Shown: one piece after another, positions 974 through 9,973 of the stretch
Position numbering within the stretch: position 1 is the stretch's first letter
Layout: each line of letters opens with the position of its first letter
Source of the DNA: Pseudomonadota bacterium
Lineage (GTDB): Bacteria > Desulfobacterota > WTBG01 > JAGOGO01
Length of the DNA: 10,626 bases
Assembly (NCBI GenBank): GCA_021160085.1
Contig: JAGHDE010000253.1
Coordinates: 1-10,626 of the forward strand
Direction: 5' to 3'
Notes under the pieces: generated by a model
Database searches by the model: none
Seen by the model: the letters and a program-made list of their open reading frames with translations, nothing else
Told to the model about the DNA's origin: nothing
Program-made: the position numbers and the translations under genes

Positions 974-3163
974 TTATTTTGTTAAAAACGGAGGAAAATT
1001 TTTGGTCTTAACTGTCTTCGAGTCGGGAAGAACCCAGAGAGCAGACGAATCAGGAAACTTTTTTCTCAAAAACGCTTTTCCTTTTTCCGGTCCCATGATA
1101 AAGAGGGTGGTTGCCAGCGCATCTGCCAGTTCCGCATTCGGGGCAACAACAGTAACGCCTATGCTTTTACCGGCTGAACTTATTTTTTCCAGATCGATGA
1201 TATGGTGTTTCCTTTTGTGCTGTTCAACTGAGTATGAGTATTGACGATAATCACCCGAAGTACAAACAGCCATATTCATAATTGAAATAACCCCTAACAG
1301 GCCTTCCAGCCGGGGATGTTTAATCCCTATATTCCAATTCTCGTTGCCAAAACAGAAGAGATCTCCGCCTGCTTCCACTATACCGGCAGAGACACCTTCC
1401 TTTTTTATCTCCTCAACGGCATTATCAATAATCGTGCCTTTGCCTATTCCCCCAAGATCGAGGGCCATACCTTTTCTGGGCAGAAAAACTGTACTGTTCT
1501 CGTCGTTCAACTGGACAAGCCGGTAATTGACAAGGGCTTTTTTCTCTTTATAAGAGTATTTGTAATATTCAGGTTTTATGCTTATGGCACCTATAGAAAT
1601 ATCAAACACCCCATCACTTTTTTCACAAAATAACAAAGCCCTCTTGATAAGCTCAAATGCCTTTGGAGTGACTCTGACCGAATTCTTTCCTGCTTCGCTA
1701 TTTATTTTTCCTACTGAACCGGTTGGACAATGGTGGTCAATGTCTTTCTCTAATTCATGTATGACTGCAAAAGCATCGTCCGCCGCCGCCTCGGCGGCAT
1801 CCTCATCAGACGCCTTCAGGGTAAGCTGTATATAAGTTCCCATTGCCAGATCTGCAAAGCGGAATCGCTCTTTTGCAACAGCCTTAACAGGCCCTAAAAT
1901 TGTTACCACCCAGAATACAAGTATAAGTGCAACTGCTATCGAGGAACCAAGATAATCAAAGTATTTGAGTCGGGAGCATGCAATGTTTTTGACAAGGCTT
2001 GTACCCAGGGGAAGACATGAGATAATTCCTATTATACCGATAATCCAGAAAACTCCGGGTAATCCTTTGGCTTTAAAGGCTAATCCTCCCATAAGAGGGC
2101 CGAGGATAAAACCAAGGTTAGCAGCCCCATAAAAAGCCCCCATAGTTTTACCCTGCTCACTGCTAATAATTGAGGCCTCGGACATGGATGCCGGTATAGA
2201 AATCGCGGAGCCAAGACCCAGTAGCAAAAGAAAAGCTATAATACCTGTTGTTGTCTGGACTTTTCCCATAAAAAGCAGAGGAAAAGCACATATAAGCATA
2301 CCAGCCAAAGTAAGAAAAATCTTGTTGAAATGGTCCGCTAATCTTCCAGTCAAAGGTAAAACAAGACAGGTAACCATAGTTGGTAACGAGAAGAATATTC
2401 CCAGAATCACACTATTGACGGTAAGTTTTTCCATCATCAATATGGGCAAAAATGAAATTGTTACAGCCATTCCTGCTGTCCTGCCAGCCACTGCCAGCAA
2501 CAAATTAAGAAACTCCCCATCCGTTTCAGCTCTTATACCTGAAACTTGTTTTTGACTAATTTTTTTGGAAAGGAAAATGTTTTTTGCAAAAAAAATAATG
2601 AGTATTAGCAATGATGCCAACATACAGAAAAAAAGAGATAAAATGACAGGGACCGGATTTTTCTGATGATATAAAAACCCTCCGAGCAAGGGCCCGCTGA
2701 TGAGGGCAGCATAAAAAAAAGTATTATACAAGCCGAACCACTTTCCACCGTATTCTTCAGACGACTCCGCTCCGATTACTGCCATGCTTACCGGTTTGAT
2801 GATACCGACAACTATCCCCAGTCCGAATTGAACTAAATATATCGGGAGTGATGGATTGTAAAACAGGTATCCCAGAGGAATTAATGTGCCAAGGAGTAAA
2901 GAAAAAATGAGAAGGGGGCGTGGACCTGTTTTGTCTGCCAGAATTCCAGCAAAATAGCCGACCAATAATTTGGCAAGAAAATACCCGGTGAACGCAGATC
3001 CAAGCCACACCCCGGTCATGCCCACATCTCTTGCCAGGAGGGGAAAAGAGAAAGAGAATGTACAAACACCAAGGGTGGAGAAAAATGTCATGAAGCAGAG
3101 AGCCCAGAATGACCGTTCTCCACCCTTAAAAGATTTTCTTATTGAGGTCACAAACTTTGACAC
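974..3163 (-). CDS. MFS transporter fused to FAD:protein FMN transferase (ApbE)
   Basis: The product is 729 residues. Residues 15-395 form a 12-helix major facilitator domain with a loop 2-3 motif A (GYFAGILADKTGPRP, about 69-83) and a degenerate second copy (GRLADHFNK). A thirteenth hydrophobic segment (about 403-424) links to an ApbE domain (about 433-729). ApbE blocks visible are MGT (441-443), GVFDISIGAI, ALDLGGIGKG, AGGDLFCFG, CTSGDYRQY and ADALATTLFIMG, whose Asp and Thr match the Mg2+-binding positions of the family. With N- and C-termini of the MFS part in the cytoplasm, the extra helix would place ApbE in the periplasm, where it transfers FMN from FAD to Thr of RnfG. The usual ApbE signal peptide or lipobox is absent. 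The usual HIIDPxTG loop reads HIIDLEKISSAGKS. The start is GTG (3161-3163) without a good Shine-Dalgarno, 2 nt after the stop of the small upstream ORF, suggesting translational coupling. It is the last gene of the operon. The MFS substrate is unknown; flavin export is an inference. Confidence 0.9.
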   Translation of the reverse strand: MSKFVTSIRKSFKGGERSFWALCFMTFFSTLGVCTFSFSFPLLARDVGMTGVWLGSAFTGYFLAKLLVGYFAGILADKTGPRPLLIFSLLLGTLIPLGYLFYNPSLPIYLVQFGLGIVVGIIKPVSMAVIGAESSEEYGGKWFGLYNTFFYAALISGPLLGGFLYHQKNPVPVILSLFFCMLASLLILIIFFAKNIFLSKKISQKQVSGIRAETDGEFLNLLLAVAGRTAGMAVTISFLPILMMEKLTVNSVILGIFFSLPTMVTCLVLPLTGRLADHFNKIFLTLAGMLICAFPLLFMGKVQTTTGIIAFLLLLGLGSAISIPASMSEASIISSEQGKTMGAFYGAANLGFILGPLMGGLAFKAKGLPGVFWIIGIIGIISCLPLGTSLVKNIACSRLKYFDYLGSSIAVALILVFWVVTILGPVKAVAKERFRFADLAMGTYIQLTLKASDEDAAEAAADDAFAVIHELEKDIDHHCPTGSVGKINSEAGKNSVRVTPKAFELIKRALLFCEKSDGVFDISIGAISIKPEYYKYSYKEKKALVNYRLVQLNDENSTVFLPRKGMALDLGGIGKGTIIDNAVEEIKKEGVSAGIVEAGGDLFCFGNENWNIGIKHPRLEGLLGVISIMNMAVCTSGDYRQYSYSVEQHKRKHHIIDLEKISSAGKSIGVTVVAPNAELADALATTLFIMGPEKGKAFLRKKFPDSSALWVLPDSKTVKTKNFPPFLTK

Positions 3164-3382: not shown

Positions 3383-5458
3383 TTAGCTTGCCTCTTTGAT
3401 ATCCTTATCGTAGCAGGTAAGGCAGCAGTTCATGCATCTGTTTGCTTCTTTCAGAGCTTCTTCTTCCGTTATCGTCAGATCCACTTCTTCCATGGTGTGG
3501 ATCCTGGTCTTGGGGTCAAGTTGAGATAGTTTGATCCTTCCTTTTTTTTCTATGCCGGAGATGCTGTCAAAAATAGTTCCTGGAATGTGTTCTTTTGGTT
3601 TTAGTCTTCCTTCCGGAAAATTCATATCCTCACCGGTAATAAAAAGATGGATACTTCTTGCTGCTTTCCTCGCATCTCCAATAGCTTCTACCAGAATACC
3701 TGGACCACCATAACCCGCGTCTCCTCCCGCAAATACATAAGGAATGGCAGTCTGGTTGGTATCTGCATCGATGGCGATGGAATTCCATTTGGTCTTTTCT
3801 ATATCCTTAACCCTACGGTTCGTTTCCATAAAGGAAAGGTCAGAGTACTGGCCAATTGCCAGAATCAGATTATCAAGGGGAAGCAATGTCTCCGAGCCCT
3901 TGATAGGAATCGGCCTTCTCCTGCCACTCTCATCGGGTTCGCCCAGCTCCATCTTAATATATTCCAGCTGGGTAAGTTTACCATTTTCTTCTACTATTCT
4001 TCCTGGTGCAGATAGGAGAATAGCTTCTACTCCTTCATCTTGACACGCTTCTATCTCTTCCGGGTTCGCCGGCATTTCCGTTTTACTTCTACGGTAAATT
4101 AAAAAGACCTTTTCCGCACCCAGCCTGAGACTGGTCCGGAGGCAATCCATTGCGGTATTTCCACCACCGATGACGCCCACCTTCTTTCCGACAGGATTGG
4201 GAATACCCAAACCTTGTCTTTCTAAGAAGATAGTAGCCCCTTCAACTCCTCCTACTTCTTCTTTCTCCATACCGGCTGACTTGTATTTCCATGCCCCGAT
4301 TGCCATAAAAACTGCTTTATAACCTGCTGCCACAAGGGATTCCAGGTCAAAATCGAGGCCAAATTTAATATTAACTCTCGCCTCAATGCCCAGGTCGAGT
4401 ATTCCTTGAATTTCCCATTCAAGAATCTTTTTGGGAAGGCGGTATTCAGGTATGCCATAGTAGAGCATCCCGCCTAATTTTGGTTGCATCTCAAATATGG
4501 TTACTGAATAGCCGAGTCTTCTCAGAAAATAGGCACAGGAAAGTCCACCGGGGCCACCTCCGATAACAGCTACTTTATGCCCGTTGTCTGGAGCTACTGA
4601 AACGGGTAAGTGTTTACCTGTGTTCATCTCGTAATCGGCTACAAAGCGCTTCAACTGGTTAATGGATACCGGGTCATCGGCCAGGGCTCTTCGGCATGCA
4701 TCCTCACAAGGATGAGGGCAAACCCGACCACAGGAAAGGAGAAAGGGGTTTCTCTCCTTGATGGTCAGCACAGCTTCTTCGTATCTCCCGTGCTTTATGT
4801 GATCAATATATCTGGGAATATCGATCTGGGCAGGACATGTCTGCTGACATGGCGCCAGCCGGTCATCCAACCTGTTGAAATGCATTATTTTTTCAGAATC
4901 ACGACGGACTTTGATTGCGCCTGTGGGGCACACATTTTCACACGTGCCGCAACCGGTACAAAGTTCCAGATCGACTAAGGGGAGATTGTTTTCACTCATG
5001 GTAAGTGCATTAAAAAGGCAGTTTCTTACACAGGTTCCCTGTCCAAGGCATGCCACTTCGCACTTTTTATCACCCCGATATAGAAGGGACAATGCCCGGC
5101 AGTCCCGAATTCCGGAATAATTATACTTTGTTTCTGCCCGGATGCCGCCGGTGCAGGTCAGAAAAGCCTGCTTTGTTTCTGCTGCCTCAACTTCCATTCC
5201 CATAACTGCTGCTACGGCCTGTACTACGCCTGGACCACCTGCAACACAGGAACCAGGAGAAGCTTCACCTGCAACTATCGCTGCCGCGCAGGCACTGCAT
5301 CCAGCGTACCCGCATCCCCCGCAATTTGCACCGGGAAGGCATTCCTCTACCTCCGCAATTTTCGGGTCTTCATACACATAGAAAACTATGGCAGAAAAAC
5401 CTAATATAACTGCGGCGATGGCTCCTAAAATCAACAAAAAAACAAAAGCATCTACCAT
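3383..5458 (-). CDS. rnfB: RnfB fused to a GltD/NfnB-like FAD-NAD(P)H oxidoreductase
   Basis: The product is 691 residues, against roughly 190-330 for ordinary RnfB. Residues 5-27 are the membrane anchor. Cys46, Cys49, Cys54 and Cys71 form the Fe-S cluster domain typical of RnfB, and two ferredoxin-type motifs follow (Cys133/137/143/147 and Cys167/170/173/177). From about residue 195 the protein becomes a glutamate synthase small-subunit-like module. It has Cys204/208 and Cys243/247/251/255 (SCGRVCPHPCEDAC) for Fe-S binding, an FAD-binding VAVIGGGPGGLSCAYFL (about 296-312), an NAD(P)H-binding VGVIGGGNTAMDC (about 427-439) followed by YRRSKTEMPA, and a second FAD segment, YVFAGGDAGYGGPG (about 574-587). 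The end carries another Cys cluster (CMNCCLTC, 675-682). The whole soluble part should face the cytoplasm, joining ferredoxin oxidation to an NAD(P)H site. ATG at 5456-5458 has a good Shine-Dalgarno (GGAAGGA, 7 nt away). There is no frameshift or internal stop, so the fusion is one continuous frame. Confidence 0.95.
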   Translation of the reverse strand: MVDAFVFLLILGAIAAVILGFSAIVFYVYEDPKIAEVEECLPGANCGGCGYAGCSACAAAIVAGEASPGSCVAGGPGVVQAVAAVMGMEVEAAETKQAFLTCTGGIRAETKYNYSGIRDCRALSLLYRGDKKCEVACLGQGTCVRNCLFNALTMSENNLPLVDLELCTGCGTCENVCPTGAIKVRRDSEKIMHFNRLDDRLAPCQQTCPAQIDIPRYIDHIKHGRYEEAVLTIKERNPFLLSCGRVCPHPCEDACRRALADDPVSINQLKRFVADYEMNTGKHLPVSVAPDNGHKVAVIGGGPGGLSCAYFLRRLGYSVTIFEMQPKLGGMLYYGIPEYRLPKKILEWEIQGILDLGIEARVNIKFGLDFDLESLVAAGYKAVFMAIGAWKYKSAGMEKEEVGGVEGATIFLERQGLGIPNPVGKKVGVIGGGNTAMDCLRTSLRLGAEKVFLIYRRSKTEMPANPEEIEACQDEGVEAILLSAPGRIVEENGKLTQLEYIKMELGEPDESGRRRPIPIKGSETLLPLDNLILAIGQYSDLSFMETNRRVKDIEKTKWNSIAIDADTNQTAIPYVFAGGDAGYGGPGILVEAIGDARKAARSIHLFITGEDMNFPEGRLKPKEHIPGTIFDSISGIEKKGRIKLSQLDPKTRIHTMEEVDLTITEEEALKEANRCMNCCLTCYDKDIKEAS

Positions 5459-5577: not shown

Positions 5578-6153
5578 TTAAGCCATTCCCAGGAAACCGA
5601 AAAAAGACAGCGCCATGAACCCTGCGGTTATCATTGTAACAGCAGTGCCTTCCATTATTTTGGGAATCCTTGCCGTGGCCATCCTTTCCCTGAGGCCTGC
5701 CATAATTACTAAGGCGAGTCCAAAACCTATCGCTGATGTAACTGAAAATACCAGAGTCTCCATAAAATTGAAGTCTTTCCGAACATTGATGATGCACACT
5801 CCGAATATCGCACAGTTGGTGGTAATCAGGGGGAGGAATATTCCCAATCCTTTATAGAGGGGAGGAACCATTTTTTTCAGGAAGGTTTCGACAAACTGGA
5901 CTAAGGCTGCGATAACCAGGATGAAAACTATCGTTCTCAGATAAACAAGGTCGAAATGACGTAATAAAAAGAAGTCTATTGTCCAGGTAATAACCCCGGC
6001 CAGGGTCAATACAAAAACAACCCCTCCTGCCATTCCTGCAGCAGTGTCCATCTTTTTCGATACCCCAACAAAAGGGCAGTTTCCCAGATATTGGGCCAGC
6101 AGAATGTTGTTAACAAAAATTGCACTTACGGCCATAAGTAGATAATCAGACAT
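5578..6153 (-). CDS. rnfA: Rnf complex membrane subunit RnfA
   Basis: The product is 191 residues, the standard RnfA length, with about six transmembrane helices. The two cysteines that RnfA shares with RnfE, thought to ligate an intramembrane [2Fe-2S] cluster at the subunit interface, are present: Cys26 in QYLGNCPFVGVS and Cys114 in LPLITTNCAIFGV. The subunit is homologous to NqrE and, with RnfE (NqrD homologue), carries electrons across the membrane. The start ATG (6151-6153) is preceded by a strong GGGAGG ribosome binding site and lies 12 bp after the rnfE stop. Nothing is unusual in the protein. The roughly 120 bp after it, before rnfB, is one of the few long gaps in the operon. Confidence 0.96.
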   Translation of the reverse strand: MSDYLLMAVSAIFVNNILLAQYLGNCPFVGVSKKMDTAAGMAGGVVFVLTLAGVITWTIDFFLLRHFDLVYLRTIVFILVIAALVQFVETFLKKMVPPLYKGLGIFLPLITTNCAIFGVCIINVRKDFNFMETLVFSVTSAIGFGLALVIMAGLRERMATARIPKIMEGTAVTMITAGFMALSFFGFLGMA

Positions 6154-6165
6154 TTAAATTCCTCC

Positions 6166-6762
6166 CTACATATCTTTTGCTTTTCCAAACAAATTCATGG
6201 TACAGAGTATGAGCCCCAGACAGACAAATGCACCAGGAGCACTAACCATGAAGGTAAACGGTTCAAAGGATGGGCCCATTATTTTGATTCCGTAAAGAGT
6301 TCCCGCTCCAAACAATTCTCGAATCGCTGCCAGAACGGTCAAAGAAATAGTATAACCTATTCCCATTCCCAGTCCATCGGCGATAGATGCAACCACCCCA
6401 TTTTTGGAGGCAAACGCCTCTGCTCTGCCCAACACGATGCAGTTAACTACAATAAGTGGAATGAATATTCCCAGCTTTTGGTAAAGGGGATAGGCATACG
6501 CCTGTGATACCAGCTCCACTATAACAACAAATGTAGCAATAACTACAATAAAACAGGCGATCCTTACACTCGGAGGAATAATTTTTCTTAACAAAGAAAT
6601 GAGAATATTTGAAAAGACCAGAACAAATGTCAACATGAGACCCATCCCGATACCGGTTTCTACTGATTTTGTAACCGCCAGCGTAGGACAAAGCCCCAGC
6701 ACAAAACGAAACGGTGGAATCTCAGCCCATAACCCTTTGGTAAATTCCTTAACAATACTCAT
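6166..6762 (-). CDS. rnfE: Rnf complex membrane subunit RnfE
   Basis: The product is 198 residues and hydrophobic with about six helices. It starts MSIVKEFTKGLWAEIPPFRF, which matches the amphipathic N-terminus of RnfE/NqrD proteins. The conserved cysteines are Cys25 (VLGLCPTLAV) and Cys108 (IPLIVVNCIVLGRAEAFA), the partners of RnfA Cys26 and Cys114 around the membrane iron-sulfur cluster. The AEAFA run after the second Cys distinguishes RnfE from RnfA. The start ATG (6760-6762) has an AAGGAG site in the 10-bp gap after rnfG. Length and motifs are normal for the family. Confidence 0.96.
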   Translation of the reverse strand: MSIVKEFTKGLWAEIPPFRFVLGLCPTLAVTKSVETGIGMGLMLTFVLVFSNILISLLRKIIPPSVRIACFIVVIATFVVIVELVSQAYAYPLYQKLGIFIPLIVVNCIVLGRAEAFASKNGVVASIADGLGMGIGYTISLTVLAAIRELFGAGTLYGIKIMGPSFEPFTFMVSAPGAFVCLGLILCTMNLFGKAKDM

Positions 6763-6772
6763 GTGTCTCTCC

Positions 6773-7363
6773 TTATTTGATCTCCTTTAGTTTTGCTAAT
6801 ATATCACTCTTCAAATTTTTGTAAATTTCAGAACCAAGGTTGGCGCCTTCGCAAACACCCCTGGATGTTATGGTCGCACCGGATACGGCATCTACCTTAC
6901 CGCCATCTTTCTTAACCCTGATAATTTCGTTTACTGAAAGACCATTAAAGCTATTCTTGAAGGGTTCTGAATCCTTGGCTCGCGCACCAACCCCCGGTGT
7001 TTCCTTGTGAGTAGTAATTCCGATACCGGAAACAGTATCGTTTTCCAAGTTAACGGCCATAATCATTCCAATATCTCCTCCAAATCCTGATCCTTGTGTT
7101 TCGAAAGCAACTACATTAGTTTCTCCATCGAAAACCCCGGGGAAAAAATTAATCTCTTTTTCATTATACTTCAACTTGAAACGATCTTTAATTGGATTAT
7201 TGGTGCATCCCTTGAAGACTTCCATTATCACCGGACCTTTTACAAATTTAAGCTCTTGATATTCGATCTTCTCCATGGTGACCATACGCACCCCCGCGAG
7301 CAATGCTGCGGCAATACCACAAATAAGACCAAGGACAACGACCATTTTTATAACATCACGCAT
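6773..7363 (-). CDS. rnfG: Rnf complex flavoprotein subunit RnfG, covalent FMN carrier
   Basis: The product is 196 residues with one N-terminal membrane helix (about 5-27) and an extracytoplasmic FMN-binding domain. The flavinylation motif is intact: VDAVSGATITS at about 157-167, with Thr164 the expected FMN attachment residue. Other family blocks are FETQGSGFGGDIGMIM (about 87-102), GIGITTHKETPGVGARA and the motif itself near the C-terminus. FMN is attached through a phosphoester bond by ApbE, whose gene ends this same operon. Its ATG (7361-7363) overlaps the last codons of rnfD by 8 bp, so the two are probably translationally coupled; an AAAGGTGG site lies inside rnfD. RnfG passes electrons between the membrane Fe-S cluster and RnfD on the outer face in current Rnf/Nqr models. 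Confidence 0.95.
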   Translation of the reverse strand: MRDVIKMVVVLGLICGIAAALLAGVRMVTMEKIEYQELKFVKGPVIMEVFKGCTNNPIKDRFKLKYNEKEINFFPGVFDGETNVVAFETQGSGFGGDIGMIMAVNLENDTVSGIGITTHKETPGVGARAKDSEPFKNSFNGLSVNEIIRVKKDGGKVDAVSGATITSRGVCEGANLGSEIYKNLKSDILAKLKEIK

Positions 7364-8324
7364 TTTCTACCACCTTTCCGATAGCCTTCGGCCTGATTTT
7401 ATCGACAAGCGGATTAATAAGATTCATGAGGAGAATAGCAAAAACTACCCCGTCATAGTACAATCCAAGGCACCTTATCAGGACTGTTATTATTCCACAA
7501 CCCAATCCAAATATCAGCATGGGGATAAAATTAACCGGAGAGGTCGTATCATCAGTAGCCAGAAAAAAGGCCCCGAGCATAACATTTCCGGTTAAGAGGT
7601 GAAACAAAGGGAAAGCGTATTTTTCCGGATTGGCAATATTGAACAGAAAAGCGGTGATAAAGATTCCAACCAGAAAAGAGATGGATATTTCCCACCTGAT
7701 AAATCCTCTAACGATAAGGTAGATTCCGCCGATTAAAAGACCCAGCCCGCAAACAGCGCCAATACCTCCTGACTGCTTTCCTATAAAAAGATCCATCAAA
7801 TTGTATTTAGCAGTTGCTGCTGTTCCGAAATGCTTCAGCGCCGCCAAAGGATAAGCCATATAAAAACCAAGATCGTAATTTAGAAATGCCTCATCAAAAT
7901 CCATGTGACCTTTCCAGGAAATCATAATAATAGCAAAACCAATAAGGGTGGGATTTAATGGATTTGCCCCGATTCCTCCGAAGACCTGTTTGCCGATAAT
8001 GATGGCAACAAAGGCGCCTATCACTACCAGCCACCAGGGCACGCTGGCCGGAAGGAGCATACCTATAAGAAGTCCACTAAGGGCAGCGCTTCCGTCATCA
8101 ATTGAAATCTTCTTCCTGGCGATAATATTTATAACCAGTTCGGCAATCATTGCGCATCCAATAGAGAGGGTAATAACCCTCAGGGCAGGCATCCCGAAAA
8201 TTGAGATTCCCACAAATAATGCCGGAAGCGCCGCCACTGCAATATTGATATTTCTGACGGAGATTCTACTTCCATCGTGCCAGTGAGGTGCAGAGGAAAC
8301 AGCAAGTTTTTTGTCGTTATTCAT
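7356..8324 (-). CDS. rnfD: Rnf complex membrane subunit RnfD, lacking the usual FMN-acceptor threonine
   Basis: The product is 322 residues with about nine to ten helices, homologous to NqrB. Family blocks are present: DDGSAALSGLLIGMLLP (about 76-92), GGIGANPLNPTLIGFA (about 116-131), DLFIGKQSGGIGA (about 178-190) and LTGNVMLGAFFLATDDTTSPV (about 244-264). The segment where RnfD/NqrB normally reads S/M-A-T-P-L-A, with Thr carrying covalent FMN, reads YMAYPLAAL here. Tyr158 (codon 7851-7853) therefore replaces the acceptor Thr, and no SGAT-like substitute is seen nearby. Covalent flavinylation of this subunit is probably lost. The start ATG overlaps the rnfC 3' end by 8 bp. The subunit otherwise looks complete and unbroken, so it is probably functional in a modified way rather than decaying. 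Confidence 0.93.
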   Translation of the reverse strand: MNNDKKLAVSSAPHWHDGSRISVRNINIAVAALPALFVGISIFGMPALRVITLSIGCAMIAELVINIIARKKISIDDGSAALSGLLIGMLLPASVPWWLVVIGAFVAIIIGKQVFGGIGANPLNPTLIGFAIIMISWKGHMDFDEAFLNYDLGFYMAYPLAALKHFGTAATAKYNLMDLFIGKQSGGIGAVCGLGLLIGGIYLIVRGFIRWEISISFLVGIFITAFLFNIANPEKYAFPLFHLLTGNVMLGAFFLATDDTTSPVNFIPMLIFGLGCGIITVLIRCLGLYYDGVVFAILLMNLINPLVDKIRPKAIGKVVENA

Positions 8325-9579
8325 TAACCGCCTCCGAAAGTTTAATTAACTCAAGTTCATGTTTAGCCAATTTAATGTACTGTAAAAGAGGTCTTCTCGC
8401 AGTACAGACATATGCACATAATCCACATTCTATGCAAGAATTAAGATCGTATCTTTCAGCATCTTCATAAAATCCAAATTCCGCAAACCTGCAAAGAAAA
8501 TTCACCGGGATCCTTACCGGACAGATCCTTACGCACTCGCCACAGCTGATACAGGGATAATCTGAGACCTGAGCGCTGTCGGATTCGCTTTGAACTGTAA
8601 TTGCTTCGGTGTTTGGCTCAATGGGAAGATCTTTGGAATAAGTAGCGGTTCCCATCATGGGTCCGCCTAAGATTATCCGGTCATTTTCCTCCGGAGCAAC
8701 ATTGTATTTAGAAAGAATATCACCGATGGGTGTCCCTATCCTTGCCTTGACATTAATAACCTTTCCATTTTTTCCCACCACGGAAAGCGCTTTAATTACG
8801 GGAACTTTTCCCGTAGCAAACGCCTCGCCAACGGCGGCTGTACTTTCCGCGCTAATCACAGCAACTCCAATATCTTCCGGCTTCTGTCCGGCGGGGACTA
8901 CCTTGCCAAGAGTGTTTTTTATAATCATTTCTGGAAGGGCATCAGGGAAGGTTGCAGACACGGTTTTTACCGTAGCCCCCGTACGATTTGCTTCTTTAGA
9001 CAAATTCTCGGGAACAGCAATAATAAAATTACTTACCCCGGTAATCTTTTTAAGAAAATCAATCCCCTCTTTTATCCGGGAGGAATTTGTCCTTACAATC
9101 TCTTGATTGACAGTAATTCCCAAGTCTACATCCATTCCATTGATGATTATTGTATCAACCTTCTTTGTGACGTCACTGAATTTACGGAAGGAAAATTTAC
9201 CAGGGGCGAATTCTAAAAAGTCTATAGCTGTTTCCAATGTTGCCTCCCCGGTAAACTGATCATCCCAATCATCGTTTCTATCTGATTCAATTTTGATGCC
9301 CTCGTACGCCTGGCCTAATGCATCTGTATAAGGAAAAATACTGGATATCTTTCCCGTTACCGGAGAGATGACATACTCTGGTGAGTCAGGAAAAGCCTTA
9401 ATCTTCTGACCGGTCTTAACATTATCGCCGACCTTAAGAAGCTTTTCTTCCGATTTTCCATTTAATTTTTTCAGAAATAGGATAGCTTCCCGGGAAGCAG
9501 GAATGTCCTCAAAAGGGAACGATTCCAAACAATATTTCAATTCCGGTTTTTTTAATCCAAAAAACGGTTTTTTGATCAT
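8317..9579 (-). CDS. rnfC: RnfC-like Fe-S subunit with degenerate NADH/FMN site
   Basis: The product is 420 residues. The SLBB-like region (ARIGTPIGDIL, RIILGGPMMG at about 301-310) and two [4Fe-4S] motifs (Cys343/346/349/353 and Cys382/385/388/392) identify RnfC. However, the parts that bind FMN and NADH in RnfC and NuoF have diverged. The glycine-rich GLGGAGFPTxxK block corresponds to EFAPGKFSFRKFS (about 123-135). NGAECEPYLTxD corresponds to NGMDVDLGITVN (about 147-158). YPxGxEKQL corresponds to FPDALPEMI (about 211-219). The N-terminal GGxHPxxxK and QHIG blocks are also not recognisable. The protein may act purely as an Fe-S conduit or docking subunit, recalling NqrA, which also lacks an NADH site. 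The frame is intact. ATG 9577-9579 has a modest GAAGG site. The gene follows the cytochrome by 34 bp. Confidence 0.92.
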   Translation of the reverse strand: MIKKPFFGLKKPELKYCLESFPFEDIPASREAILFLKKLNGKSEEKLLKVGDNVKTGQKIKAFPDSPEYVISPVTGKISSIFPYTDALGQAYEGIKIESDRNDDWDDQFTGEATLETAIDFLEFAPGKFSFRKFSDVTKKVDTIIINGMDVDLGITVNQEIVRTNSSRIKEGIDFLKKITGVSNFIIAVPENLSKEANRTGATVKTVSATFPDALPEMIIKNTLGKVVPAGQKPEDIGVAVISAESTAAVGEAFATGKVPVIKALSVVGKNGKVINVKARIGTPIGDILSKYNVAPEENDRIILGGPMMGTATYSKDLPIEPNTEAITVQSESDSAQVSDYPCISCGECVRICPVRIPVNFLCRFAEFGFYEDAERYDLNSCIECGLCAYVCTARRPLLQYIKLAKHELELIKLSEAVNE

Positions 9580-9613: not shown

Positions 9614-9973
9614 CTACATAACATGGCATTCTCCACACTTGACCGGCCCTGTTTCCTGTTCCTTGTGACAATCAAGACATTGACTGTGAAATGCTTCTGC
9701 CCTGGAATAATTGTCCCCATCCTTATAATGGCATTCGATACAGGATAATGGCATTCCTTCGCCTTCTTCATAGTAATGGTGACAATCGATACAGCCGATG
9801 TCGTATTCGGTTGAGTGCATATTGTGGTCAAATAAAACCTTTCCTGCATTTGTTTTGTATAGAAGCCTTATCGGTATATCCGGTTTCTTTTCTACCATGC
9901 TGTATCCGGCAGCACCTATTATAAGCATGACCACCATAATGATACATGCCACCATTTTCTCTTTTTTTTTCAT
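9614..9973 (-). CDS. Membrane-anchored tetraheme c-type cytochrome, class III (c3/c7)-like
   Basis: The product is 119 residues with a lysine-rich start and one hydrophobic segment (about 8-25) acting as a signal anchor or signal peptide, then an extracytoplasmic domain. There are four CxxCH heme sites: CIDCH (61-65), CIECH (78-82), CLDCH (99-103) and CGECH (113-117). His50 and His53 in LFDHNMH are typical distal-ligand positions of class III cytochromes. It is the first gene of the Rnf operon. Multiheme cytochromes next to rnfC are known from Methanosarcina (MmcA) and Desulfovibrio, where they are thought to exchange electrons with Rnf on the outer face. That role is inferred here from position. 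The start ATG (9971-9973) overlaps the stop of a short upstream ORF and has only a weak AAGGGA site. Confidence 0.92.
   Translation of the reverse strand: MKKKEKMVACIIMVVMLIIGAAGYSMVEKKPDIPIRLLYKTNAGKVLFDHNMHSTEYDIGCIDCHHYYEEGEGMPLSCIECHYKDGDNYSRAEAFHSQCLDCHKEQETGPVKCGECHVM

What the first reader, a model, noticed from the sequence alone, without database searches (positions are those of the whole stretch)
8923..9216. RnfC has lost the recognisable NADH/FMN-binding signatures
Aligned by eye with E. coli RsxC, the GLGGAGFPT, NxAECEPYxTxD and YPxGxxKQL blocks are all replaced (EFAPGKFSFRKFS, NGMDVDLGITVN, FPDALPEMI). The flanking strands, GGPMMG and both [4Fe-4S] motifs are kept. Selective loss of one site in an otherwise intact subunit suggests altered function rather than decay. 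It complements the NAD(P)H module gained by RnfB.
Basis: partly seen in the sequence, partly recalled or inferred. Interest (0 to 1): 0.75.

Follow-up and report, generated by a model that had tools for sequence, protein, structure and literature searches.

The report
Rnf ion pump without NADH site
In this bacterium one copy of the Rnf membrane ion pump has a rebuilt RnfC subunit that no longer shows the parts needed to hold FMN and NADH, a change shared by many related bacteria, and the pump probably passes its electrons outwards to a haem protein instead.

Summary

It is not new: PMC5109826 describes this "D. toluolica Tol2-type" Rnf with large RnfB and RnfC without NADH and SLBB domains, acceptor unknown.

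The link to the RnfB fusion holds one way only. In 108 operons besides the window, fused RnfB sits with variant RnfC in 30 of 30 and with canonical RnfC in 0 of 33; but variant RnfC also occurs with short RnfB, in a sister clade, archaea and class-mates. The site was probably lost before the fusion. A multihaem cytochrome gene lies upstream in 61 of 70 variant and 0 of 26 canonical operons.

New here: RnfD of cytochrome-linked operons lacks the Thr that carries FMN (0 of 62; canonical 28 of 30), while RnfG keeps its own. I infer that the return leg RnfD-RnfC is dismantled and electrons leave from RnfG to the c3-type cytochrome.

The parts
9614..9973 (-). tetrahaem c3-type cytochrome (TmcA-like), 119 aa, N-terminal signal/anchor, four CxxCH
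   Evidence: PF02085 E 1e-12; NF045722 TmcA 77 bits, under its cut-off of 114; CxxCH at residues 61, 78, 99, 113. The signal/anchor is my reading of the sequence
8317..9579 (-). RnfC, variant without recognisable FMN/NADH site, 420 aa
9175..9213 (-). block 1 (residues 123-135), in place of the FMN glycine loop GxGGAxFP; shortened
9106..9141 (-). block 2 (residues 147-158), in place of NxxECEPYxTxD; Asp150 and Asp152 conserved in the subfamily
8923..8949 (-). block 3 (residues 211-219), in place of YPxGxxKQL; Pro212 and Pro216 conserved
8650..8667 (-). GGPMMG, kept
8518..8553 (-). first [4Fe-4S] motif of RnfC, kept
8404..8436 (-). second [4Fe-4S] motif of RnfC, kept
7356..8324 (-). RnfD, 322 aa, without the FMN-bearing Thr
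   Evidence: PF03116 E 2.8e-96
7851..7853 (-). RnfD Tyr158, where canonical RnfD has the flavinylated Thr of (S/T)xATPL
6773..7363 (-). RnfG, periplasmic FMN subunit, DVU2794 type
   Evidence: NF045876 241 bits, cut-off 205
6872..6874 (-). RnfG Thr164 of SGATITS, FMN attachment site, kept
6166..6762 (-). RnfE; both cluster-site Cys kept (C25, C108)
5578..6153 (-). RnfA; both cluster-site Cys kept (C26, C114)
3383..5458 (-). RnfB fused to an NfnL/GltD-type NAD(P)H:FAD domain, 691 aa
   Evidence: PF04060 residues 41-72, PF14691 202-280, PF07992 295-594; PDB relatives NfnA 9n5u (residues 181-632) and RnfB 7zc6 (10-192)
974..3163 (-). MFS transporter fused to ApbE flavin transferase, 729 aa; the likely enzyme that flavinylates RnfG
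   Evidence: PF07690 and PF02424 E 7.7e-62; role inferred from the family

Best explanation
The window encodes a cytochrome-linked Rnf complex of the D. toluolica Tol2 type. Its RnfC keeps the fold and two [4Fe-4S] motifs but has lost the signatures of the site that holds FMN and reduces NAD+ (shown by sequence; cofactor content inferred). Its RnfD has lost the Thr to which FMN is attached (shown by sequence), while RnfG keeps its FMN-Thr and RnfA/E keep their cluster Cys (shown). In a canonical Rnf, electrons go out from RnfB by RnfA/E to RnfG and back in by FMN-RnfD and riboflavin to RnfC and NAD+ (passages of PMC9588780 and PMC11889175). Here the return leg lacks two of its flavin sites, so I infer a one-way path: cytoplasmic donor to RnfB to RnfA/E, coupled to ion transport, to RnfG-FMN to the periplasmic c3-type cytochrome encoded just upstream, or the reverse. 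In this clade RnfB later gained an NfnL-type FAD/NAD(P)H domain, so NAD(P)H, perhaps together with ferredoxin, is the likely cytoplasmic partner. RnfC would then be mainly structural or a docking and one-electron relay subunit.
For: RnfC: all 120 proteins listed lack the signatures and share replacement blocks. RnfD Thr (window included): absent in 62 of 62 variant operons with an upstream multihaem cytochrome (32 Tyr, 10 Ala, 5 Ser, 4 Asp, 4 Pro, 2 Phe, 2 Glu, 1 Asn, 2 gaps), present in 28 of 30 canonical (1 Val, 1 Ser), and still present in 6 of 6 class-mate-type variant operons without cytochrome. RnfG Thr kept in 25 of 25 canonical and 68 of 71 variant rows (1 Ser, 2 cut off by contig ends). 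Cytochrome gene upstream in 61 of 70 variant and 0 of 26 canonical operons with at least 600 bases of upstream sequence. In L136 tmcC and tmcB, both over their equivalog cut-offs, stand just before the cytochrome. Precedent: the M. [quoted passage not shown] ANME/Methanosarcinales loci L078 and L079 also lack the RnfC signatures. In D. alaskensis, vesicle experiments to show an ion gradient driven by Fd-to-NAD+ transfer were unsuccessful (passage of PMC4841214), though I did not see that strain's RnfC.
Against: No biochemistry on any Tol2-type complex was found. RnfC keeps both [4Fe-4S] motifs, and RnfD keeps in most rows the Asn that I take for the riboflavin contact (69 of 75 variant rows), which suggests that RnfC may still carry electrons. 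The cytochrome next to rnf (dhcA) was not important for fitness in D. [quoted passage not shown] FMN could bind RnfD non-covalently. Ser at the RnfD site (5 of 62) might still be flavinylated. The bacterial cytochrome-linked operons of the tree fall in one clade, so their shared traits are not independent. S. aciditrophicus membranes do reduce NAD+ (PMC8805022); its rnf genes were not examined here.
Confidence: 0.55

Rival explanations
1. The return leg still works: RnfD holds FMN non-covalently, and RnfC passes single electrons from its two [4Fe-4S] clusters to (or takes them from) a soluble protein such as ferredoxin that docks where NADH used to bind. The complex would be an NAD(P)H-ferredoxin exchanger with donor and acceptor sides swapped.
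For: Both cluster motifs of RnfC are invariant or nearly so; the Asn that I take for the riboflavin contact is kept in 69 of 75 variant RnfD; new conserved blocks in RnfC.
Against: The RnfD Thr is replaced by many different residues in cytochrome-linked operons, as expected if the flavin is gone; the Asp that I take for the riboflavin contact is Glu in 47 of 75; no shared extra gene stood out as an RnfC partner in the 13 loci laid out (looked at by eye, not tested).
Confidence: 0.25
2. Site swap: the NAD(P)H site moved from RnfC to RnfB, and RnfC degenerated because the fusion made it redundant.
For: 30 of 30 fused RnfB in rnf operons sit with variant RnfC and 0 of 33 canonical operons have a fusion.
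Against: The sister clade with short RnfB has lost the RnfC signatures too; class-mates and ANME as well; G098 shows no full-length fused RnfB.
Confidence: 0.1
3. FMN and NADH still bind RnfC in a rearranged pocket built from the new blocks (PGxxSF, NGxDxDL).
For: Asp150, Asp152, Gly127 and Gly148 are conserved; phmmer lays GKFSFR on the glycine loop; PF01512 still matches from position 19, over its cut-off.
Against: Glycine loop shortened and its second Gly and Ala gone; the M. acetivorans Rnf, of a lineage whose RnfC also lacks the signatures in L078 and L079, does not interact with NAD(P).
Confidence: 0.08
4. Decay of a dying gene.
For: None beyond the loss of signatures.
Against: Intact reading frame, confident intact fold, conserved replacement blocks; five subunits of the D. 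multivorans Rnf2 were detected under all tested conditions.
Confidence: 0.02

Closest known systems
D. toluolica Tol2-type Rnf / D. multivorans Rnf2 (PMC5109826, section 23 read in full)
   Same: RnfB of about 700 aa with NAD+ sites, RnfC lacking its NADH-ubiquinone oxidoreductase and SLBB domains, small acidic cytochrome in the D. multivorans rnf2 cluster, canonical Rnf in the same genome (D. multivorans)
   Different: Host here is not shown to be a sulfate reducer (no dsrA match in the 77%-complete assembly). The RnfD FMN-Thr loss is not mentioned in that section. Tol2 sequences themselves were not compared
Methanosarcina acetivorans Rnf (PMC4023990, passages)
   Same: RnfC with two cluster motifs but no NAD(P) reaction; multihaem cytochrome gene; RnfG proposed to feed the cytochrome
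   Different: Archaeal; its ANME/Methanosarcinales relatives L078 and L079 have short RnfB and lie on another branch of the core tree. M. acetivorans itself was not put in the tree
Canonical ferredoxin:NAD+ Rnf (A. woodii, C. tetanomorphum, A. vinelandii; PDB 9eri, 7zc6, 8ahx)
   Same: Six subunits, RnfC fold and cluster motifs, RnfG FMN-Thr, RnfA/E Cys
   Different: RnfC FMN/NADH signatures and RnfD FMN-Thr absent; RnfB fused
Na+-NQR
   Same: NADH side placed on the RnfB/NqrF side; NqrA, the RnfC homologue, lost its cofactors (passages)
   Different: RnfC keeps both cluster motifs; fused domain is NfnL/GltD-type, not NqrF-type; no quinone site shown
Two-subunit Nqr/Rnf-like system (PMC8238504 and PMC10979944, passages)
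   Same: Proposed one-way electron flow from NAD(P)H outwards; RnfD-like flavinylation site not conserved
   Different: Only two subunits; here the full RnfABCDGE set is kept

Membership tests
Rnf complex (broad sense) | six subunits RnfA, B, C, D, G, E in one operon | tested here: met
Rnf complex (broad sense) | RnfC fold with two [4Fe-4S] motifs | tested here: met
Canonical ferredoxin:NAD+ Rnf | FMN/NADH signatures GxGGAxFP and NxxECEP in RnfC | tested here: not met
Canonical ferredoxin:NAD+ Rnf | FMN-bearing Thr in RnfD | tested here: not met
   (Tyr158)
Canonical ferredoxin:NAD+ Rnf | FMN-bearing Thr in RnfG | tested here: met
   (Thr164)
Canonical ferredoxin:NAD+ Rnf | ferredoxin:NAD+ oxidoreductase activity | not testable with these tools
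   needs enzyme
D. toluolica Tol2-type Rnf | RnfB of about 700 aa with NAD-binding domain | tested here: met
   691 aa
D. toluolica Tol2-type Rnf | RnfC lacking NADH-UQ oxidoreductase and SLBB domains as a domain search sees them | tested here: inconclusive
   no SLBB match at E <= 1; PF01512 still passes its cut-off (47.1 against 31.2 bits) but without its first 18 positions, so degraded rather than absent; which models the paper used is not known to me
D. toluolica Tol2-type Rnf | small cytochrome gene in the cluster (as in D. multivorans rnf2) | tested here: met
D. toluolica Tol2-type Rnf | sequence kinship to the Tol2 or D. multivorans proteins themselves | not tested
   those sequences were not fetched; Desulfobacula sp. 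loci L033 and L037 share the architecture
Na+-NQR | NqrA-type subunit without clusters | tested here: not met
   both cluster motifs kept
NfnL/GltD-type NAD(P)H:FAD domain (C-terminal part of RnfB) | Fer4_20 plus Pyr_redox_2 with FAD and NAD(P) loops | tested here: met
TmcA | NF045722 equivalog cut-off of 114 bits | tested here: not met
   77.4 bits: TmcA-like only

The most novel reading that the evidence does not exclude
Cytochrome-linked Rnf complexes of the Desulfobacterota form an ancient class of one-way, outward-wired ion pumps. Both flavin sites of the return leg (RnfD FMN and RnfC FMN) are gone, so the complex couples a cytoplasmic low-potential donor (ferredoxin, or NAD(P)H through the fused NfnL domain, possibly by flavin-based bifurcation) to periplasmic c3 cytochromes, and not to NAD+ at RnfC. 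Members still called ferredoxin:NAD+ oxidoreductases would be misnamed.
Probability: 0.42. Interest if true: 0.78.

Novelty: new member of a known kind. Interest (0 to 1): 0.6.

Why it matters
What the Rnf complexes of sulfate reducers and their relatives deliver electrons to is open: PMC5109826 says the RnfC electron acceptor/donor 'has to be identified' and the mode of action awaits experimental verification. The joint loss of the RnfC site and the RnfD FMN-Thr, with RnfG intact and a c3 cytochrome alongside, turns that into a direct test: count the flavins and offer the cytochrome. If right, energy budgets that assume Fd:NAD+ exchange by these complexes need revision.

Tried and rejected
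Simple co-loss of the RnfC site with the RnfB fusion: rejected because of the short-RnfB sister clade. Three operons first flagged as fused are not: in canonical L160 and L164 a separate NfnB-type gene lies 0.7-1.2 kb beyond the rnf genes and RnfB is short; in variant L169 the GltD-type frame (477 aa) has no RnfB part and no RnfB was seen. All other 30 have both parts in one frame (in L025 a stop lies within the RnfB part). With L169 left out, the fewest fusion changes stay 2; counted as short, 3. L014 and L015 RnfB are cut by contig ends and were counted as 'cut', not short.

Three variant operons without rnfB (L013, L016, L028) have a fused RnfB elsewhere in the genome, in L016 and L028 only of a second type about 40% identical; L172 has one of that type about 6 kb away on the other strand.

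Independent-pair test of cytochrome against RnfC state: only 2 pairs, no power. All variant operons as one clade: not rejected (p-AU 0.762; the held tree even scored better than the quick free tree), so one loss or two cannot be told apart. SECIS folds for the RnfE TGA: z -0.95, -0.73 and -0.95 (Cys control -0.66), no support beyond shuffles. Searches in print for an RnfB-glutamate-synthase-type fusion (0 papers; listing), for RnfD flavin loss in sulfate reducers (passages of two hits) and for selenocysteine in RnfE (listing only) gave nothing further on those points. The original Tol2 report cited by PMC5109826 and the Pereira 2011 survey were not seen. No residue-level superposition on FMN/NADH contacts was possible: the tools give ranges, not coordinates. 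The Desulfovibrio vulgaris and alaskensis RnfC sequences were not obtained.

Full report
WHAT IS THERE. The window (contig C94 of a 1.34-Mb, 77%-complete assembly) carries on the minus strand: part of a response regulator (PF00072), a tetrahaem c3-type cytochrome, rnfC, rnfD, rnfG, rnfE, rnfA, an rnfB fused to an NfnL/GltD-type domain, and an MFS-ApbE fusion. The nearest RnfC listed with an organism (80% identical) is from a Syntrophales MAG (P0005). No dsrA was found in the assembly, which is incomplete.

NOT DECAY, AND NOT ALONE. All 120 listed proteins lack both signatures, and the replacement blocks are conserved. A search from a second variant RnfC gave, among 120 listed, 63 without either signature, 56 with both and 1 with one; named sources among the 63 include Desulfonatronovibrio, Desulfohalobiaceae and Desulfobacterales.

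CO-OCCURRENCE. From (80 loci; 7 of them, L080-L086, gave no Rnf hit), E. coli, and re-fetched stretches I built a table of 108 operons besides the window (L149, L167 and L168 dropped as repeats of L069, L008 and L017; L160, L164 and L169 corrected; totals): 75 variant, 33 canonical, by two regular expressions for the signatures. RnfB within 8.5 kb of variant RnfC: 30 fused, 17 short, 2 cut by a contig end, 26 not seen (many contigs end there; L169 has a separate NfnB-type gene). Of canonical RnfC: 0 fused, 26 short, 7 not seen. In 4 of the 30 (L017, L054, L145, L173) the fused domain scores much lower against the window's (221-286 bits). Upstream multihaem cytochrome (at least four CxxCH, within 2.5 kb, at least 600 bases available): 61 of 70 variant, 0 of 26 canonical. 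The set was drawn by similarity to variant RnfC, so canonical operons are under-sampled; the contrast, not the proportions, is the result.

EXCEPTIONS TO THE FUSION RULE. A clade of eight operons (L135-L137, L139-L142, L144) has variant RnfC, short RnfB and, in six, a four-haem cytochrome upstream. Class-mates of the window (L069, L147, L148, L151, L152, and L150 with RnfB not seen) have a differently altered RnfC and no cytochrome. ANME/Methanosarcinales L078 and L079 have variant RnfC, short RnfB and multihaem cytochromes. Clostridia L073 has a variant RnfC, short RnfB and no cytochrome. L009 and L008/G098 (Candidatus Desulfaltia and kin) have variant RnfC with a short RnfB nearby; G098 (estimated 100% complete) shows one RnfC, variant, and no full-length fused RnfB.

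ORDER OF EVENTS. On a tree of RnfD, G, E and A (67 operons, IQ-TREE with ultrafast bootstrap; 89 operons, quick tree) the bacterial operons of the cytochrome-linked type that were in the tree form one clade (support 100 in both). It splits into the eight short-RnfB operons (99, then 98) and the fusion-type operons (98, then 99, 49 rows, among them rows with RnfB not seen and one short, L009). The fewest changes are 2 for the RnfC state and 2 or 3 for fusion, by how L169 is counted. The simplest reading: RnfC lost its site before RnfB gained the NAD(P)H domain. The tree does not decide between one loss and two (holding all variants together is not rejected, p-AU 0.762).

A SECOND LOSS. RnfD carries FMN on a Thr (C. 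tetanomorphum Thr153, PMC9588780; motif here (S/T)xATPL). In the window this residue is Tyr158. Across 105 aligned RnfD (window included) the Thr is present in 28 of 30 canonical rows (the others Val, with the site unaligned, and Ser), 0 of 62 variant rows with cytochrome and 6 of 13 variant rows without (all six from the class-mate group). Among the 31 rows with fused RnfB (window included, L169 taken out) it is 0. The flanking PL-ALK is conserved in most fusion-type rows, so the column is secure there; for L135-L137 and L139 and the archaea it is less so. RnfG keeps its Thr in 25 of 25 canonical and 68 of 71 variant rows (1 Ser, 2 truncated), and RnfA/E keep the cluster Cys in nearly all rows. 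The Asp of RnfD that I take for the riboflavin contact (column placed by me from the text of PMC9588780, not by residue number) is Glu in 47 of 75 variant rows (Asp 27, Asn 1) and Asp in 30 of 30 canonical.

HOW IT MOST LIKELY WORKS. Shown: which sites are kept and lost. From the published structures (passages of PMC9588780 and PMC11889175): electrons pass RnfB - RnfA/E - FMN of RnfG - FMN of RnfD - riboflavin - RnfC clusters - FMN - NAD+. Inferred: with the FMN of RnfD and RnfC missing, the second half is broken or rebuilt, and the natural outlet is from RnfG, in the periplasm, to the c3-type cytochrome. In L136 tmcC and tmcB stand just before this cytochrome (TmcC 314 bits, cut-off 240; TmcB 787, cut-off 735), which ties the complex to periplasmic electron traffic; L139 and, about 5 kb off and on the other strand, L008 carry genes that look alike, without a TmcB/C profile test. 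The fused domain is nearest in the PDB to Nfn and Stn subunits and NADPH glutamate synthase and has a YRR segment after the second glycine motif; that this favours NADPH is recalled, not tested.

AGAINST. RnfC keeps its clusters; dhcA of D. alaskensis was not important for fitness in nearly all conditions; non-covalent FMN in RnfD is possible. The rival in which RnfC is a one-electron port stays open.

WHAT IS KNOWN. PMC6129605 (passages) calls a cytochrome c3 in the rnf operon typical for Rnf-carrying sulfate reducers and infers electron transfer to or from the periplasm. PMC4023990 (passages) reports no NAD(P) reaction for the M. acetivorans complex. The window is therefore a new member of a known, uncharacterised kind. 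I found no mention of the RnfD loss in full-size Rnf complexes in the searches and passages listed, which cover open-licence PMC papers only.

Noticed in passing
L141 (minus, 6045-6650), L142 8817-9422, L144 8789-9427: rnfE is interrupted by an in-frame TGA exactly at the second conserved, cluster-site Cys (VVN-TGA-(I/V)PLGRAEAF) in 3 of 4 genomes of one genus; the fourth (L140) has Cys. All four genomes have tRNA-Sec and SelB matches over cut-off. Among the RnfE matches listed in the phylum search only these three hold a TGA. A selenocysteine ligand in RnfE is suggested; the hairpin after the TGA is not better than shuffles.
   Followed up: partly
G000:C47 (L154): The same genome also carries a canonical Rnf (RnfC 468 aa with GLGGAAFP and NGCECEP, TIGR01945 501.9 bits, RnfD Thr present), as in D. 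multivorans.
   Followed up: partly
974-3163: MFS transporter fused to the ApbE flavin transferase in one 729-aa frame; perhaps a flavin carrier joined to its transferase.
   Followed up: no
L087, L088, L089, L091, L092, L094-L097: A second family of RnfB-GltD fusions, about 40% identical to the window's, stands outside rnf operons, in L091 and L094 just after a roughly 600-aa gene that reads like NuoF/HydB (not profile-tested).
   Followed up: partly
L160 3370-5013, L164 12420-13913, L169 11503-12933: rnf operons (two canonical, one variant) with a separate NfnB-type gene close downstream, a possible forerunner of the RnfB fusion.
   Followed up: no
L069, L147, L148, L150, L151, L152: Relatives in the window's class have another altered RnfC (loop shortened, NxTEFE kept), the RnfD Thr kept, no cytochrome and, where readable, gene order G-E-A-B-C-D: a different solution from the window's.
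   Followed up: partly
RnfD of variant operons: The Asp that I take for the riboflavin contact is Glu in 47 of 75 variant rows, Asp in 30 of 30 canonical.
   Followed up: no
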